From NCBI GenBank assembly GCA_019136545.1, contig JAGVUA010000003.1, positions 1 to 42,084 of the forward strand: a DNA stretch of 42,084 nucleotides, in the 5' to 3' direction. Below are positions 4,910 through 33,639 of the stretch, in pieces. The stretch is from Betaproteobacteria bacterium (GTDB lineage: Bacteria; Pseudomonadota; Gammaproteobacteria; Burkholderiales; Rhodocyclaceae). How positions within the stretch are numbered: the stretch's first letter is position 1; the number at the start of each line of letters is the position of its first letter. Both the position numbers and the translations under genes were made by a program. The notes beneath the pieces were generated by a model. The model was not told the origin of the DNA and did not search any database. It saw only the letters and a program-made list of their open reading frames with translations.

Positions 4910-4930
4910 CGGCACGCCGGCGGCGTGCCG
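4910..4930. repeat. Perfect 10-bp inverted repeat after smpB
   Basis: CGGCACGCCG (4910-4919), one central G, then CGGCGTGCCG (4921-4930). It begins just after the smpB TAG and would form a very stable hairpin. Its right arm is part of copy A of the dispersed 25-bp repeat. Confidence 0.8.
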
Positions 4931-4945
4931 CCACGGCTGACTTTC
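4921..4945 (-). repeat. Dispersed 25-bp repeat, copy A
   Basis: On the minus strand it reads GAAAGTCAGCC and then GTGGCGGCACGCCG, one mismatch from the consensus built from all copies. It begins one base past the qmcA stop codon, reading in the same sense as qmcA. See the findings for the whole family. Confidence 0.75.
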
Positions 4946-4957
4946 GTCAGCCTTTCT
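4935..4957 (+). terminator. Intrinsic terminator of smpB, overlapping the qmcA stop
   Basis: GGCTGAC (4935-4941), loop TTTC, GTCAGCC (4946-4952), then TTTCTT. On the minus strand the same stem carries a GAAA tetraloop, a very stable GNRA fold, placed at the qmcA stop codon (4947-4949). It can end smpB transcripts; for qmcA it lacks a T tract and would act mainly as 3'-end structure. Confidence 0.65.
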
Positions 4958-5801
4958 TCCCGAGCAGCCCCTTGATCGTTTCCTGGATGTCGGCCGGCAG
5001 CAGCACGGTCTTGGCGTTCTCGGAACTCGCCAGCCGGTTCACCGCAGCCAGGTATTTCTCGCCCAGCATGTAGCGCATCGGCGCCTCCTCGGTGCCGATG
5101 GCCTGCGTGACGCGCTTGATGGCTTCGGCGCTCGCCTCGGCCAGCGTCACCTGTGCCGTGGCGTCGCGATGCGCCGCTTCCAGCCTTGCCTCGGCCTGGA
5201 GGATCATGGCCTGCTTCTCGCCCTCGGCCTTCGTCACCATGGCCTTGCGCTCGCGTTCGGCCGACGCCTGCATCTCCATCGCCTTCTGCATCGACGGCGA
5301 GGGCTTGATATCCTGGATTTCCACCGACTTCACCGTCAGGCCCCAGTCGATCGCCTCGTCGGAAATGCTCTCGCGCAGCCGCGCCTTGATGCGGTCGCGG
5401 TTCGACAGCGCCTCGTCGAGCTGCATCTCGCCGACGATGGAGCGCAGCGTGGTCATGATCAGGTTGCGGATCGCCTCGGAGAAATCGACCACGCCGTACA
5501 CCGCCTTGATCGGATCGGTCACCTTGATGAAAGCGATGGCGTTGGTCAGGATCACCGCGTTGTCCCGGGTGATGACTTCCTGTTCCTGGACGTCGAGGAT
5601 GATGTCCTTGGTGACCAGCTTGTAGGCAATGGCGTCGAGGTAGGGAATGATGATGTTGAGACCGGGATGCAGCGTGCTGTGGTATTTGCCCAGCCGCTCC
5701 ACTACCCATTCCTCGCCCTGCGGCACGATGCGCACGCCCTTGAGCAGCGTGATGACCGCAAAAACCAGCAGCGCGACAACGAAGATGAATCCGGCACTCA
5801 T
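4947..5801 (-). CDS. qmcA: SPFH/stomatin-like membrane protease-associated protein (QmcA type)
   Basis: A 284-residue band-7/prohibitin-family protein. Residues about 3-20 form one N-terminal transmembrane segment (FIFVVALLVFAVITLL). The SPFH domain follows with VPQGEEWVVERLGKYHSTLHPGLNIIIPYLD. Then comes a long Ala/Glu-rich coiled coil (SAERERKAMVTKAEGEKQAMILQAEARLEAAHRDA), typical of oligomeric membrane-raft scaffolds. It overlaps nfeD by 4 bp. NfeD-SPFH pairs are a recognised membrane module, and this pair lies downstream of ppsA in one operon. The role is probably membrane microdomain organisation or protease regulation. The gene symbol is by family resemblance to E. coli QmcA. Confidence 0.88.
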   Translation of the reverse strand: MSAGFIFVVALLVFAVITLLKGVRIVPQGEEWVVERLGKYHSTLHPGLNIIIPYLDAIAYKLVTKDIILDVQEQEVITRDNAVILTNAIAFIKVTDPIKAVYGVVDFSEAIRNLIMTTLRSIVGEMQLDEALSNRDRIKARLRESISDEAIDWGLTVKSVEIQDIKPSPSMQKAMEMQASAERERKAMVTKAEGEKQAMILQAEARLEAAHRDATAQVTLAEASAEAIKRVTQAIGTEEAPMRYMLGEKYLAAVNRLASSENAKTVLLPADIQETIKGLLGKKG

Positions 5802-6241
5802 GACGCTCTCCCCACTTTCAACAAACTGCCTTCGACCGCGATGACCCGGACGCGTTCGCCGGCACGGATGTCTTCATCGGCGATGCACGGCCAAGTATCC
5901 GTCCCCAGCAACGGTTTCTGGAAACGCACCTCGCCCCGGCCGAACGGGGCCACGTCATGGCTCAGCAGGCCGACTTCGCCGATCATCTGCGGCTCCGACA
6001 TGCCGATGCGCGTCTTGTGCCGCTCCGGCCGGAATACCTTGAACCACAGGACGATCAGCACCAGCGAAGCCGCCAGCCAAGCCGCCAATTGCGCCGTCAG
6101 GCCGAGGGGGGCGAAAGCGACCAGCAGCGCCACCAGCAAGGCCCCCAACCCGAACCAGACCAGCACGAAAGCCGGTACGGCCAGCTCGGACAGGATCAGG
6201 ACGATGCCCGTAACGGCCCAGTGCCACCATTCGAGTTGCAT
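5798..6241 (-). CDS. NfeD-like membrane protein
   Basis: The N-terminal half (about residues 6-65) holds three close transmembrane helices: WAVTGIVLILSELAVPAFVLVWFGLGALLVALLVAF and LAAWLAASLVLIVLWFKVF. The C-terminal half (about 80-147) is the soluble OB-fold NfeD domain, with GEVGLLSHDVAPFGRGEVRF and ending RVRVIAVEGSLLKVGRA. I place the start at the ATG at 6241 because GGGAGG lies just upstream. A GTG at 6262 overlapping the ppsA stop would add seven residues (GTGATCG...). It overlaps qmcA by 4 bp and acts with it as a partner in the membrane. Confidence 0.85.
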   Translation of the reverse strand: MQLEWWHWAVTGIVLILSELAVPAFVLVWFGLGALLVALLVAFAPLGLTAQLAAWLAASLVLIVLWFKVFRPERHKTRIGMSEPQMIGEVGLLSHDVAPFGRGEVRFQKPLLGTDTWPCIADEDIRAGERVRVIAVEGSLLKVGRAS

Positions 6242-6258
6242 ACCGCCTCCCGCATCGA

Positions 6259-31710: not shown

Positions 31711-31716
31711 CCCCCG

Positions 31717-31725
31717 TGCTAGAAT
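31717..31725 (+). promoter_or_regulatory. typA extended -10 promoter
   Basis: TGCTAGAAT combines the extended TGn element with TAGAAT. No -35 is obvious, as often with extended -10 promoters. The leader to the typA ATG would be about 31 nt. Confidence 0.5.
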
Positions 31726-31762
31726 TCGCGCCCTTTTTCGCTGTATCAGGCCCACCATCCCC

Positions 31763-33595
31763 ATGTCCCGCCCGCTCAGAAACATTGCCATTATCGCCCA
31801 CGTCGACCACGGCAAGACCACGCTCGTCGACCAGTTGCTGCGCCAGTCGGGCACTTTCCGCGAAAACCAGCAGGTGGCCGAACGCGTCATGGACTCGAAC
31901 GACCTGGAGAAGGAACGCGGCATCACCATCCTCGCCAAGAACTGCGCCATCGATTTCGAGGGCACCCACATCAATATCGTGGACACCCCGGGCCACGCCG
32001 ATTTCGGCGGCGAAGTCGAACGCGTCCTGTCGATGGTGGACGGCGTCCTGCTGCTGGTCGACGCCGTCGAAGGGCCGATGCCGCAGACGCGCTTCGTCAC
32101 CCGCAAGGCGCTGGCGCTGGGCCTGAAGCCCATCGTCGTCATCAACAAGATCGACCGTCCGGGTTCGCGCCCCGACTGGGTCATCAACCATACCTTCGAC
32201 CTGTTCGACAAGCTCGGCGCCACCGAGGCGCAGCTCGACTTCCCGGTCGTCTATGCCTCGGCGCTCAACGGCTACGCGATGCTCGACGCCACCACGCCCG
32301 GCACCGACATGCGGCCGCTCTACGAAGCGATCCTCACGCACGTGCCGCCGCCCGACGTCGACGCGGAAGCGCCCCTGCAATTGCAAATCTGCTCGCTCGA
32401 CTACAACTCCTATGTCGGCCGCATCGGCATCGGCCGCATCAAGAAGGGCCATATCCGGCCCGGCCAGGAAGTCGCCGTGATGCATGGCGACGAGTCGCGC
32501 GGCAAGGCCAAGATCGGCCAGGTGCTCACCTTCCAGGGGCTGGAGCGCCAGCAGGCCGAAGATGCCGAGGCCGGCGACATCGTCCTGGTCACGGGCATCG
32601 AGCAGGTCGGCATCGGCGTCACGCTCTGCGCGCTCGACAATGCGGTCGGCCTGCCGCCCATCGCCGTGGACGAACCGACCCTGACCATGAACTTCCAGGT
32701 CAATACCTCGCCGCTGGCGGGCAAGGAAGGCAAGTTCGTCACCAGCCGCCAGATCCGCGACCGACTGCAGAAGGAACTCATGTCCAACGTCGCCCTGCGC
32801 GTCCAGGACACCGCCGATGCCGACGTCTTCGAAGTTTCCGGCCGCGGCGAACTGCATCTCACCATCCTGCTGGAAAACATGCGCCGCGAAGGCTACGAGC
32901 TGGCCGTGTCCCGGCCCCGGGTGCTGTTCAAAGACATCGATGGCCCGGACGGTCCGCTGCGGCAGGAACCCTACGAAATGCTCACGGTAGACGTCGAGGA
33001 AACCCATCAGGGCGGCGTCATGGAGGAACTCGGCCGGCGCAAGGGCGATCTCCTGGACATGCAGCCCGACGGCAAGGGCCGCGTGCGGCTCGACTACCGG
33101 ATTCCGGCGCGCGGCCTGATCGGCTTCCAGGGCGAGTTCCTGACGCTGACGCGCGGCACCGGCATGGCCAGCCACGTTTTCGACGATTATGGGCCGATGG
33201 CCGGCACCATGGCCGAGCGGCGCAACGGCGTGCTGATCTCCGCCGAGGACGGCGCCGCGGTCGCCTACGCCCTGTGGAAGCTGCAGGACCGCGGCCGCAT
33301 GTTCGTCAGCCCCGGCGACCCGCTGTACGAAGGCATCATCATCGGCATCCACAGCCGCGACAACGACCTGGTGGTCAATCCGATCAAGGGCAAGCAGCTC
33401 ACCAACGTGCGCGCCTCGGGCACCGACGAAGCCGTGCGCCTGGTGCCGCCGATCCAGATCACGCTCGAAAGCGCCGTCGAATTCATCGCCGACGACGAAC
33501 TGGTCGAGATCACGCCGAAGTCGATCCGGCTGCGCAAGCGCTTCCTCAAGGCCCACGAGCGCAAGCGCGCCGAGCGCGAAGAAGCGGCGGCCTAA
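31763..33595 (+). CDS. typA: Ribosome-associated GTPase TypA/BipA
   Basis: Translational GTPase acting on the ribosome, with roles in stress and 50S assembly. The ATG at 31763 ([28 protein letters not shown]) gives 610 residues; the upstream open frame is antisense to the mtnP promoter region. G1 is AHVDHGKTT (12-20), G3 [15 protein letters not shown]4 NKID. Domain II, an EF-G-like domain III and the TypA-specific C-terminal domain follow, ending [17 protein letters not shown]. Confidence 0.98.
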
Positions 33596-33607
33596 GATCT
33601 CCGGCGG

Positions 33608-33639
33608 CGGCGTCGAAAGTCAGCCTTCGCAGCACGCCG
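33608..33639. repeat. Hairpin formed around repeat copy C after typA
   Basis: CGGCGT and CGAA (33608-33617) pair with TTCG (33626-33629) and ACGCCG (33634-33639), with a 4-nt bulge and an 8-nt loop. It lies between the convergent stops of typA and the patatin gene and could act as a 3'-end structure. There is no T tract. Confidence 0.5.
33615..33639 (+). repeat. Dispersed 25-bp repeat, copy C, after typA
   Basis: GAAAGTCAGCC then TTCGCAGCACGCCG, two mismatches from the consensus. It starts 19 nt past the typA stop in typA sense, matching the placement of copies A and D. Confidence 0.75.

What the first reader, a model, noticed from the sequence alone, without database searches (positions are those of the whole stretch)
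4921..33639. A 25-bp dispersed repeat family at gene junctions
The consensus is GAAAGTCAGCC followed directly by GTCGCGGCACGCCG. Copies are: A 4921-4945 (minus, 1 mismatch), B 31686-31710 (plus, 2), C 33615-33639 (plus, 2), D 25625-25649 (minus, 3) and F 22301-22325 (minus, 1, inside dxr). A degenerate copy E lies at 24307-24331 (5 mismatches). Chance cannot produce five copies with at most 3 mismatches in 42 kb. A, C and D lie at or within 20 bp of a stop codon and read in the sense of the gene just ended. A and C also share a GC-rich extension that folds. No transposase or known REP/BIME sequence is recognised, so this may be an undescribed small intergenic element or RNA-end signal.
Basis: seen in the sequence. 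Interest (0 to 1): 0.75.

Follow-up and report, generated by a model that had tools for sequence, protein, structure and literature searches.

The report
Possible DNA-uptake tag in Rhodocyclaceae bacteria
A 25-letter DNA signature recurs hundreds of times, mostly inside genes and in different spellings in different genera, and it looks like a 'take up my own kind's DNA' tag of a sort so far described in two other bacterial families; the function itself has not been tested.

Summary
The repeat is real; reading it as a small intergenic element or RNA-end signal is mostly not supported. The 25-mer occurs 279 times (up to 3 mismatches; reversed control 0) in the 3.4-Mb genome. It is bipartite, AAAGTCAG-N10-ACGSCG. 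This core is exact 320 times in the own genome, 241 and 113 times in two congeners, 405-452 times in three genomes of another genus and 71 times in one genome of a third, with genus-specific spacers ('dialects'). It occurs 0-3 times in the rest of 150 family genomes and 0-2 times in the rest of 399 order genomes, bar one with 11. Of 105 sampled own copies 62 lie inside genes, 32 between genes and 11 across gene ends. In dxr, relatives without the motif have equal length, and seven of eight copies aligned to solved-structure homologues change length by at most one residue; prlC and ValRS are exceptions. REP-associated transposases do not track it. Best explanation: a DNA-uptake-sequence analogue spread by biased natural transformation, in a family where my searches found none in print. 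Uptake was not tested and no receptor was identified.

The parts
4921..4945 (-). copy A, in the 37-bp convergent gap between smpB (+) and an SPFH/Band 7 protein gene (-)
   Evidence: genes; matrix score 43.7
22301..22325 (-). copy F, in frame inside dxr (reads EVSRRGTP); homologues have the same length without the motif
25625..25649 (-). copy D, overlaps the tsf stop codon in the spacer to the next gene (amino-acid-kinase family, pyrH by recall of gene order); a motif is present at the same junction in G001, G002 and G004
31686..31710 (+). copy B, divergent gap between a phosphorylase-superfamily gene (-) and typA (+); absent at this place in G002-G006 (G001 not covered)
33615..33639 (+). copy C, 19 bp after the typA stop, convergent with a patatin-like phospholipase gene; a motif also lies just after typA in G002 and G004
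24307..24331 (+). degenerate copy E, spacer between the ribosome recycling factor gene and the undecaprenyl diphosphate synthase-type gene
   Evidence: matrix score 21.0 against 15.0 for the best control; genes
15224..15248 (-). degenerate copy inside the gene at 15085-15858 (lpxA by recall of gene order, not scanned)
   Evidence: matrix score 23.1; gene
3188..3212 (-). degenerate copy, not inside a called gene
   Evidence: matrix score 19.6; gene calls
29697..29721 (-). degenerate copy inside the GlnD-type gene, antisense
   Evidence: matrix score 19.4; gene
21554..22750 (-). dxr, host gene of copy F
25645..26541 (-). tsf, whose stop codon lies in copy D
31763..33595 (+). typA/bipA, between copies B and C

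Best explanation
The repeat is a DNA uptake sequence analogue. A surface DNA receptor of the natural-transformation machine (by analogy a minor type IV pilin) would prefer DNA carrying AAAGTCAG-N10-ACGSCG. DNA with better matches is taken up and recombined more often, so the motif accumulates wherever proteins and regulation tolerate it, by point mutation, short-patch replacement and small indels, and each genus drifts to its own dialect as receptor and motif co-evolve. Shown: genome-wide over-representation, the bipartite consensus, three dialects in three genera of one family, equal or nearly equal length in homologues for most coding copies tested, copies inside genes and at gene ends without strand polarity, and positions shared between congeners. 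Inferred: that the force is uptake bias, that ComEC and type IV pili form the machine here, what the receptor is, and that motif-poor G005 lost the system.
For: (1) Abundance: AAAGTCAG 663 against 33 for the reversed control in G000; 429/31, 432/22 and 548/42 in G001, G002 and G004; 579/38 in G015 of another genus. In 400 kb of G015, AAGTCAGT and AAAGTCAG are the top 8-mers by z (39 and 35; 8-mers seen at least 6 times; 2 of the 20 stretches had been placed at known sites). (2) Dialects on one frame: own genus G-AAAGTCAG-YCGTSGYGRN-ACGCCG; G015 R-AAAGTCAG-TCCCNGCRRS-ACGGCG (76 sites); G424 about AAAGTCAG-CGCCGGCGRG-ACGGCG (by eye, 43 of 71 exact sites listed). (3) In-place origin: at dxr, G001, G002, G004, G005 and G006 have the same length without the motif. 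Of 8 copies in 6 proteins aligned to solved-structure homologues (best two alignments read for each), dxr, PanC, the SUN/RsmB-type protein, both cysteine desulfurase copies and one HemK/PrmC copy are ungapped, the other PrmC copy differs by 1 residue, ValRS by more. (4) No polarity: 142/137, 222/230 in G015, 31 with and 27 against local GC skew in 20 stretches of G015. (5) Spread through coding and non-coding DNA: own 62/32/11 of 105, G015 43/11/4 of 58. (6) Persistence: a motif at the tsf junction in G000, G001, G002 and G004 but not G003, G005 or G006, although by eye the rest of the spacer barely aligns; 22 distinct shared pairs among the ortholog comparisons. (7) A ComEC-type channel gene in G000 and in 23 of 25 family genomes; type IV pilin-like genes in 9 of 9. 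(8) Dialects, graded drive and permissive core-genome sites are described for DUS/USS in PMC3630211 (abstract, section on dialects), PMC1939737 (abstract) and PMC2397512 (passages).
Against: No uptake experiment exists. ComEC does not discriminate: genomes without the motif have it, and motif-rich G004 gave no hit (85% complete MAG). No pilin was found common to the motif genomes examined and absent from the others. Density is lower (8-mer core about 1 per 5 kb in G000) and the motif longer than DUS or USS. prlC (name recalled) carries a net insertion of about 24 bp relative to two congeners, and ValRS is longer by 5 residues than 4xkz and by 10 than 1gax around the copy. The 24 ordered comparisons with motif-less homologues concern 11 sites: the interval between anchors is 25 at five sites (ten comparisons) but 1-4 in four comparisons (prlC and the G004 tsf junction), as an insertion would give. 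G028 and G035 show a two-fold excess of the 8-mer without the full core (211/94 and 65/30, cores 1 and 0). The bias to gene termini reported for Pasteurellaceae uptake sequences (PMC2346458, abstract) was not seen inside own or G015 genes. Regular spacing is not shown (dispersion 0.64, n=18).
Confidence: 0.6

Rival explanations
1. A binding site for a chromosomal DNA-binding protein (nucleoid organisation, segregation, replication or repair), kept by selection at hundreds of places.
For: Two conserved blocks at fixed spacing fit a protein recognition site. Some positions are kept between congeners.
Against: No strand polarity or skew correlation, unlike segregation or recombination guide motifs (recalled). 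More than half of the sampled copies sit inside genes and so constrain protein sequence. Positions turn over: the dxr copy and the copy upstream of typA have no counterpart in the relatives compared.
Confidence: 0.18
2. A selfish short motif spread by gene conversion or another copying process not linked to DNA uptake.
For: Equal-length replacement in dxr and other genes with 8-10 mismatches between the motif and the best site in the four dxr homologues compared, as expected of patch replacement. Graded degenerate copies.
Against: No machinery was identified. Neisserial DUS are reported to arise in the same way under transformation (PMC2397512, passages), so the uptake explanation already covers it.
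Confidence: 0.12
3. A REP/BIME- or MITE-like element, or solo insertion-sequence ends, moved by a transposase.
For: Short, dispersed and enriched between genes. prlC shows a net insertion of about 24 bp and ValRS 5-10 residues.
Against: Seven of eight coding copies compared with solved-structure homologues are not insertions. Y1_Tnp not found in G000, G001, G002, G004 and G468, found in G003 and G005 (G001, G002 and G004 are 85-87% complete). The possible GGCG-loop-CGCC stem is broken by C at position 14 in 36 of 104 copies without compensation at position 24 and by the G015 consensus.
Confidence: 0.06
4. An RNA-end or terminator signal.
For: A, C and D lie at gene ends. Copy A and the G004 typA-end copy fold into stable hairpins. 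Convergent gaps are over-used.
Against: 62 of 105 own and 43 of 58 G015 copies lie inside genes, partly antisense. Flank pairing is not clearly commoner for intergenic than for coding copies (4 of 31 against 5 of 62).
Confidence: 0.03

Closest known systems
DNA uptake sequence (DUS) of Neisseriaceae, ATGCCGTCTGAA and dialects, receptor ComP
   Same: Very many copies; genus dialects around an invariant core; some relatives without an abundant motif; copies kept in permissive places of the core genome (PMC3630211 abstract and one section, PMC2397512 and PMC5031613 passages).
   Different: Consensus unrelated; 25 bp and bipartite instead of 10-12 bp; hundreds instead of roughly one to six thousand copies; family Rhodocyclaceae; no receptor known and uptake untested.
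Uptake signal sequence (USS) of Pasteurellaceae, AAGTGCGGT
   Same: A strongly conserved core plus further contributing bases (USS core and AT tracts; PMC7811141 passages); dispersed through the genome; dialects.
   Different: Consensus unrelated; the second block is GC-rich ACGSCG rather than AT tracts; lower density (USS spacing about 1,000 bp in PMC7811141).
REP/BIME elements with RAYT transposases (features recalled)
   Same: Short, dispersed, partly intergenic.
   Different: Mostly inside genes, mostly equal-length sites in homologues, no conserved palindrome, transposase distribution does not fit.

Membership tests
DNA uptake sequence (functional class) | One motif strongly over-represented genome-wide, both orientations | tested here: met
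DNA uptake sequence (functional class) | Dialects between related taxa around a shared core | tested here: met
   three genera:
DNA uptake sequence (functional class) | Arises in place (mutation or recombination), tolerated in coding DNA | tested here: met
   exceptions prlC, ValRS and short intervals at the G004 tsf junction
DNA uptake sequence (functional class) | Transformation machinery present | tested here: inconclusive
   ComEC in 23 of 25 genomes with or without the motif; pilin-like genes in 9 of 9; other competence genes not searched
DNA uptake sequence (functional class) | The motif raises DNA uptake or transformation | not testable with these tools
   needs a competent culture
DNA uptake sequence (functional class) | Specific surface receptor | tested here: inconclusive
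   no pilin restricted to motif genomes among those compared:
DNA uptake sequence (functional class) | Rare in recently acquired DNA | not tested
   no island or prophage comparison was made
Neisserial DUS | Consensus GCCGTCTGAA-type with the CTG core | tested here: not met
   consensus AAAGTCAG-N10-ACGSCG; DUS letters from PMC5031613
Pasteurellacean USS | Consensus AAGTGCGGT plus AT tracts | tested here: not met
   USS letters from PMC5031613, AT tracts from PMC7811141
REP/BIME with RAYT | Y1-type transposase in genomes that carry the element | tested here: not met
   not found in G000, G001, G002, G004, G468
REP/BIME with RAYT | Conserved palindrome / hairpin | tested here: not met
   pairing broken at positions 14/24 and in the G015 dialect
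REP/BIME, MITE | Copies are insertions | tested here: not met
   seven of eight coding copies and dxr in five relatives; prlC and perhaps ValRS are exceptions
Known RNA family | Match to Rfam | tested here: not met
   0 matches in the window at gathering score

The most novel reading that the evidence does not exclude
The motif spreads by a copying or conversion process that is independent of DNA uptake: a 25-bp bipartite sequence written over existing sequence in place, with genus-specific spellings, by machinery not yet described. My evidence shows in-place replacement and dialects but not uptake.
Probability: 0.12. Interest if true: 0.9.

Novelty: new variant of a known kind. Interest (0 to 1): 0.74.

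Why it matters
A 2016 review and a 2020 research paper name only Pasteurellaceae and Neisseriaceae as families with sequence-tagged DNA uptake (PMC5031613, PMC7811141; passages read). A third occurrence, in a family whose motif-bearing MAGs come from groundwater and fen and with single-contig genomes in two genera, would suggest that uptake codes evolve outside mucosal niches. It would provide a longer bipartite tag with three dialects for finding receptor and motif co-evolution, and a way to predict gene-exchange barriers between uncultured species. It also warns annotators: short peptides such as [16 protein letters not shown] or GVPPRLTF in these proteins are imprints of a DNA motif.

Tried and rejected
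REP/RAYT, MITE, hairpin and terminator readings were tested and set aside. A receptor search through type IV pilin genes covered part of the hits of nine genomes and gave no pilin common to the motif genomes and absent elsewhere. The minor-pilin cluster of G000 resembles those of G468 and G424, but G015 has only a weak match to its FimT-like protein and motif-less G009 has a 69% identical one, so it is not the determinant. A gene-terminus bias inside genes was looked for: thirds 12/7/7 (sense) and 5/4/6 (antisense) in the own sample, 6/10/6 and 7/6/6 in G015, 3/4/8 and 3/2/7 in relatives; no consistent bias. Regular spacing was not established. A comparison of identity inside and outside shared copies (0.91 against 0.79 in 11 usable pairs) is biased, because pairs were chosen for carrying the motif, and is not used. 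G005: 14 AAAGTCAG sites in 247 kb, several resembling eroded full motifs, and no outstanding 8-mer; but at least four of its 20 contigs had been chosen because they held motif-like hits, and genome-wide the excess is only 85 against 52, so 'relics of a lost signal' is a guess. The first gene caller picked antisense reading frames and was replaced. Limits of the samples: one search listed 100 of 188 places, best matches first; four listed places (C27, C28, two on C29) were not fetched; copies at stretch ends or seen twice were dropped (104 of 105 used). Of the 67 ordered comparisons, 39 have the motif in both (22 distinct pairs), 24 lack it in the target (11 sites), 4 lie between. Two of the 24 intervals are artefacts: -60 (target with N) and -37 (G005 dxr, which one search shows to be of equal length). 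Gene calls are from a home-made codon-usage caller, not from annotation.
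Full report
WHAT WAS CHECKED. The window is contig C81 of a 3.40-Mb genome in 162 contigs (94.8% complete). By equal contig lengths, G001 corresponds to JACRIZ, G002 to JAEHDA and G004 to PMIH (inference).

ANATOMY. Aligning 104 copies chosen at 3 mismatches or fewer, the information is nearly confined to 25 bp and the flanks are unrelated. Positions 2-9 (AAAGTCAG) and 20-25 (ACGCCG) are nearly fixed, G15 and C16 are strong, and 14, 18 and 19 vary most. The window also has four weaker sites scoring 19-23 when reversed and complemented controls reach only 15. 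A four-pair stem can be drawn in the own consensus, but C at position 14 breaks it in 36 of 104 copies without compensation, and the G015 consensus breaks it too.

DISTRIBUTION IN THE GENOME. Of 105 sampled copies, 62 lie inside genes, 32 between genes and 11 straddle an end; 92% of the sampled DNA is coding, so non-coding sites are favoured but coding ones predominate. Inside genes 43 are sense and 19 antisense; the one frame with a stop codon (antisense offset 1) is empty, and the sense frame giving KVSRGGTP is commonest, 23. Of 30 intergenic copies with both neighbours known, 14 are in convergent gaps, 11 in tandem and 5 in divergent ones, while convergent gaps are 2,666 of 16,617 gap bases in the same stretches. 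In 400 kb of G015, 58 exact cores fall 43 inside genes, 11 between and 4 across ends at 87% coding. There is no relation to GC skew (31 with, 27 against). Spacing in G015 is slightly more even than random but not convincingly so.

HOW COPIES ARISE. The dxr copy (window 22301-22325) occupies the same number of bases as in the G001, G002, G004, G005 and G006 homologues, which lack the motif. Against solved-structure homologues (two best alignments read for each protein), six of eight copies in six proteins are ungapped (dxr, PanC against 5ucr, a SUN/RsmB-type protein, both copies in a cysteine desulfurase, one in HemK/PrmC), one PrmC copy adds one residue, and the ValRS copy adds five against 4xkz and ten against 1gax. 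A 25-bp insertion would add about eight. Against in-place origin, prlC (name recalled) carries a net insertion of about 24 bp relative to two congeners. In the 24 ordered comparisons with motif-less homologues (11 sites) the interval between flanking anchors is 25 in ten comparisons at five sites, 1 to 4 in four comparisons at two sites, and other values from -60 to 30 in the rest, two of these artefacts. The tsf junction has a motif in G000, G001, G002 and G004 but not in G003, G005 or G006. The typA end has one in G000, G002 and G004, none complete in G001, and none in G003, G005 and G006. The dxr copy and the copy upstream of typA are found only in G000 among the genomes covered. So copies are both inherited and turned over.

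DIALECTS AND RANGE. The short core AAAGTCAG is in excess in four of the six own-genus genomes and, unexpectedly, in G015 of another genus (579 against 38), although G015 has only two 25-mers within 3 mismatches. G003 (44/35) and G005 (85/52) show little or none; two genomes of other families, G028 and G035, show about two-fold without the full core. Reading G015 showed the same frame with another spacer: R-AAAGTCAG-TCCCNGCRRS-ACGGCG. The exact core AAAGTCAG-N10-ACGSCG occurs 320 times in G000, 241 in G004, 113 in G001, 452, 405 and 440 in G015, G468 and G513 (g11), and 71 in G424 (g180; the incomplete G478 of the same genus has 1); the remaining genomes of 150 in the family had 0-3 (G002 and G005 were not in this draw). 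The G424 spacer looks like CGCCGGCGRG (by eye). In 399 genomes of the order only G000 (320) and G106 (11, g11-like spellings, five of them on one contig) exceeded 2.

MECHANISM. A sequence present hundreds of times in both orientations, accommodated inside conserved proteins, mostly equal in length to what it replaces, spelled differently in each genus around fixed bases, and missing from some relatives is what biased DNA uptake produces in Neisseriaceae and Pasteurellaceae. Dialects are described in PMC3630211 (abstract and one section read), graded molecular drive in PMC1939737 (abstract), and appearance by recombination in permissive core-genome positions in PMC2397512 (passages). I therefore propose an uptake-sequence analogue recognised by a type IV pilin-type receptor. 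Shown: the pattern. Inferred: uptake. A ComEC gene was found in 23 of 25 genomes (not in the incomplete MAGs G003 and G004), but it does not separate genomes with and without the motif. No single pilin explains the distribution. Rivals are a chromosomal protein-binding site (0.18), a non-uptake conversion drive (0.12), a transposed element (0.06) and an RNA signal (0.03).

RAYT-type Y1 transposases were not found in G000, G001, G002, G004, G468 and G478 and were found in motif-poor G003 and G005, and in G015, G513 and G424, so there is no association. Rfam has nothing in the window at gathering score. Copy A and the G004 typA-end copy do fold well, so individual copies may serve in terminators, as the title of a 2007 paper says for DUS (seen only in the reference list of PMC5031613), but this is not general.

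NOVELTY. Searches for uptake sequences with Rhodocyclaceae and with Rhodocyclales returned no papers. A search for AAAGTCAG with 'uptake' returned 164 papers; the 20 listed look unrelated by title and abstract start. Broader searches (17 of 17 listed; 15 of 49; 12 of 47; 8 of 24) showed by title and abstract start no uptake sequence outside Neisseriaceae and Pasteurellaceae. Two listed papers on transformation in other families were opened at passages only: the Riemerella columbina paper (PMC7965970) reports preference for own DNA, and the Veillonella paper (PMC5397411) has a section on uptake bias; neither passage shows a motif. The library is open-access only, so absence from it is not proof. 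Two papers state that sequence-specific uptake is known in two families. If uptake is confirmed, this is a new variant of a known kind with an unrelated, longer, bipartite consensus.

Noticed in passing
G106 (another family, same order), contig C45:4723-12075: Five exact g11-type cores within about 7 kb, 11 in the genome: a contaminating contig or recently transferred DNA carrying a foreign dialect.
   Followed up: no
L211 / G004 contig C75, just after typA: A copy is preceded by an inverted partial copy, giving an 11-bp stem with a 6-base loop, like a terminator built from the motif.
   Followed up: partly
L232 (G015:C1:100001-120000) near 1850: Two AAAGTCAG cores face each other in one hairpin-like palindrome.
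   Followed up: no
window 4905-4955, minus strand: Copy A folds into two adjacent hairpins, the first with a GAAA loop and spanning the stop codon of the gene just ended.
   Followed up: partly
G015 sample, 400 kb: The 8-mer CTCTGTGT (ACACAGAG) is strongly over-represented (14 against 0.4 expected), unrelated to the motif.
   Followed up: no
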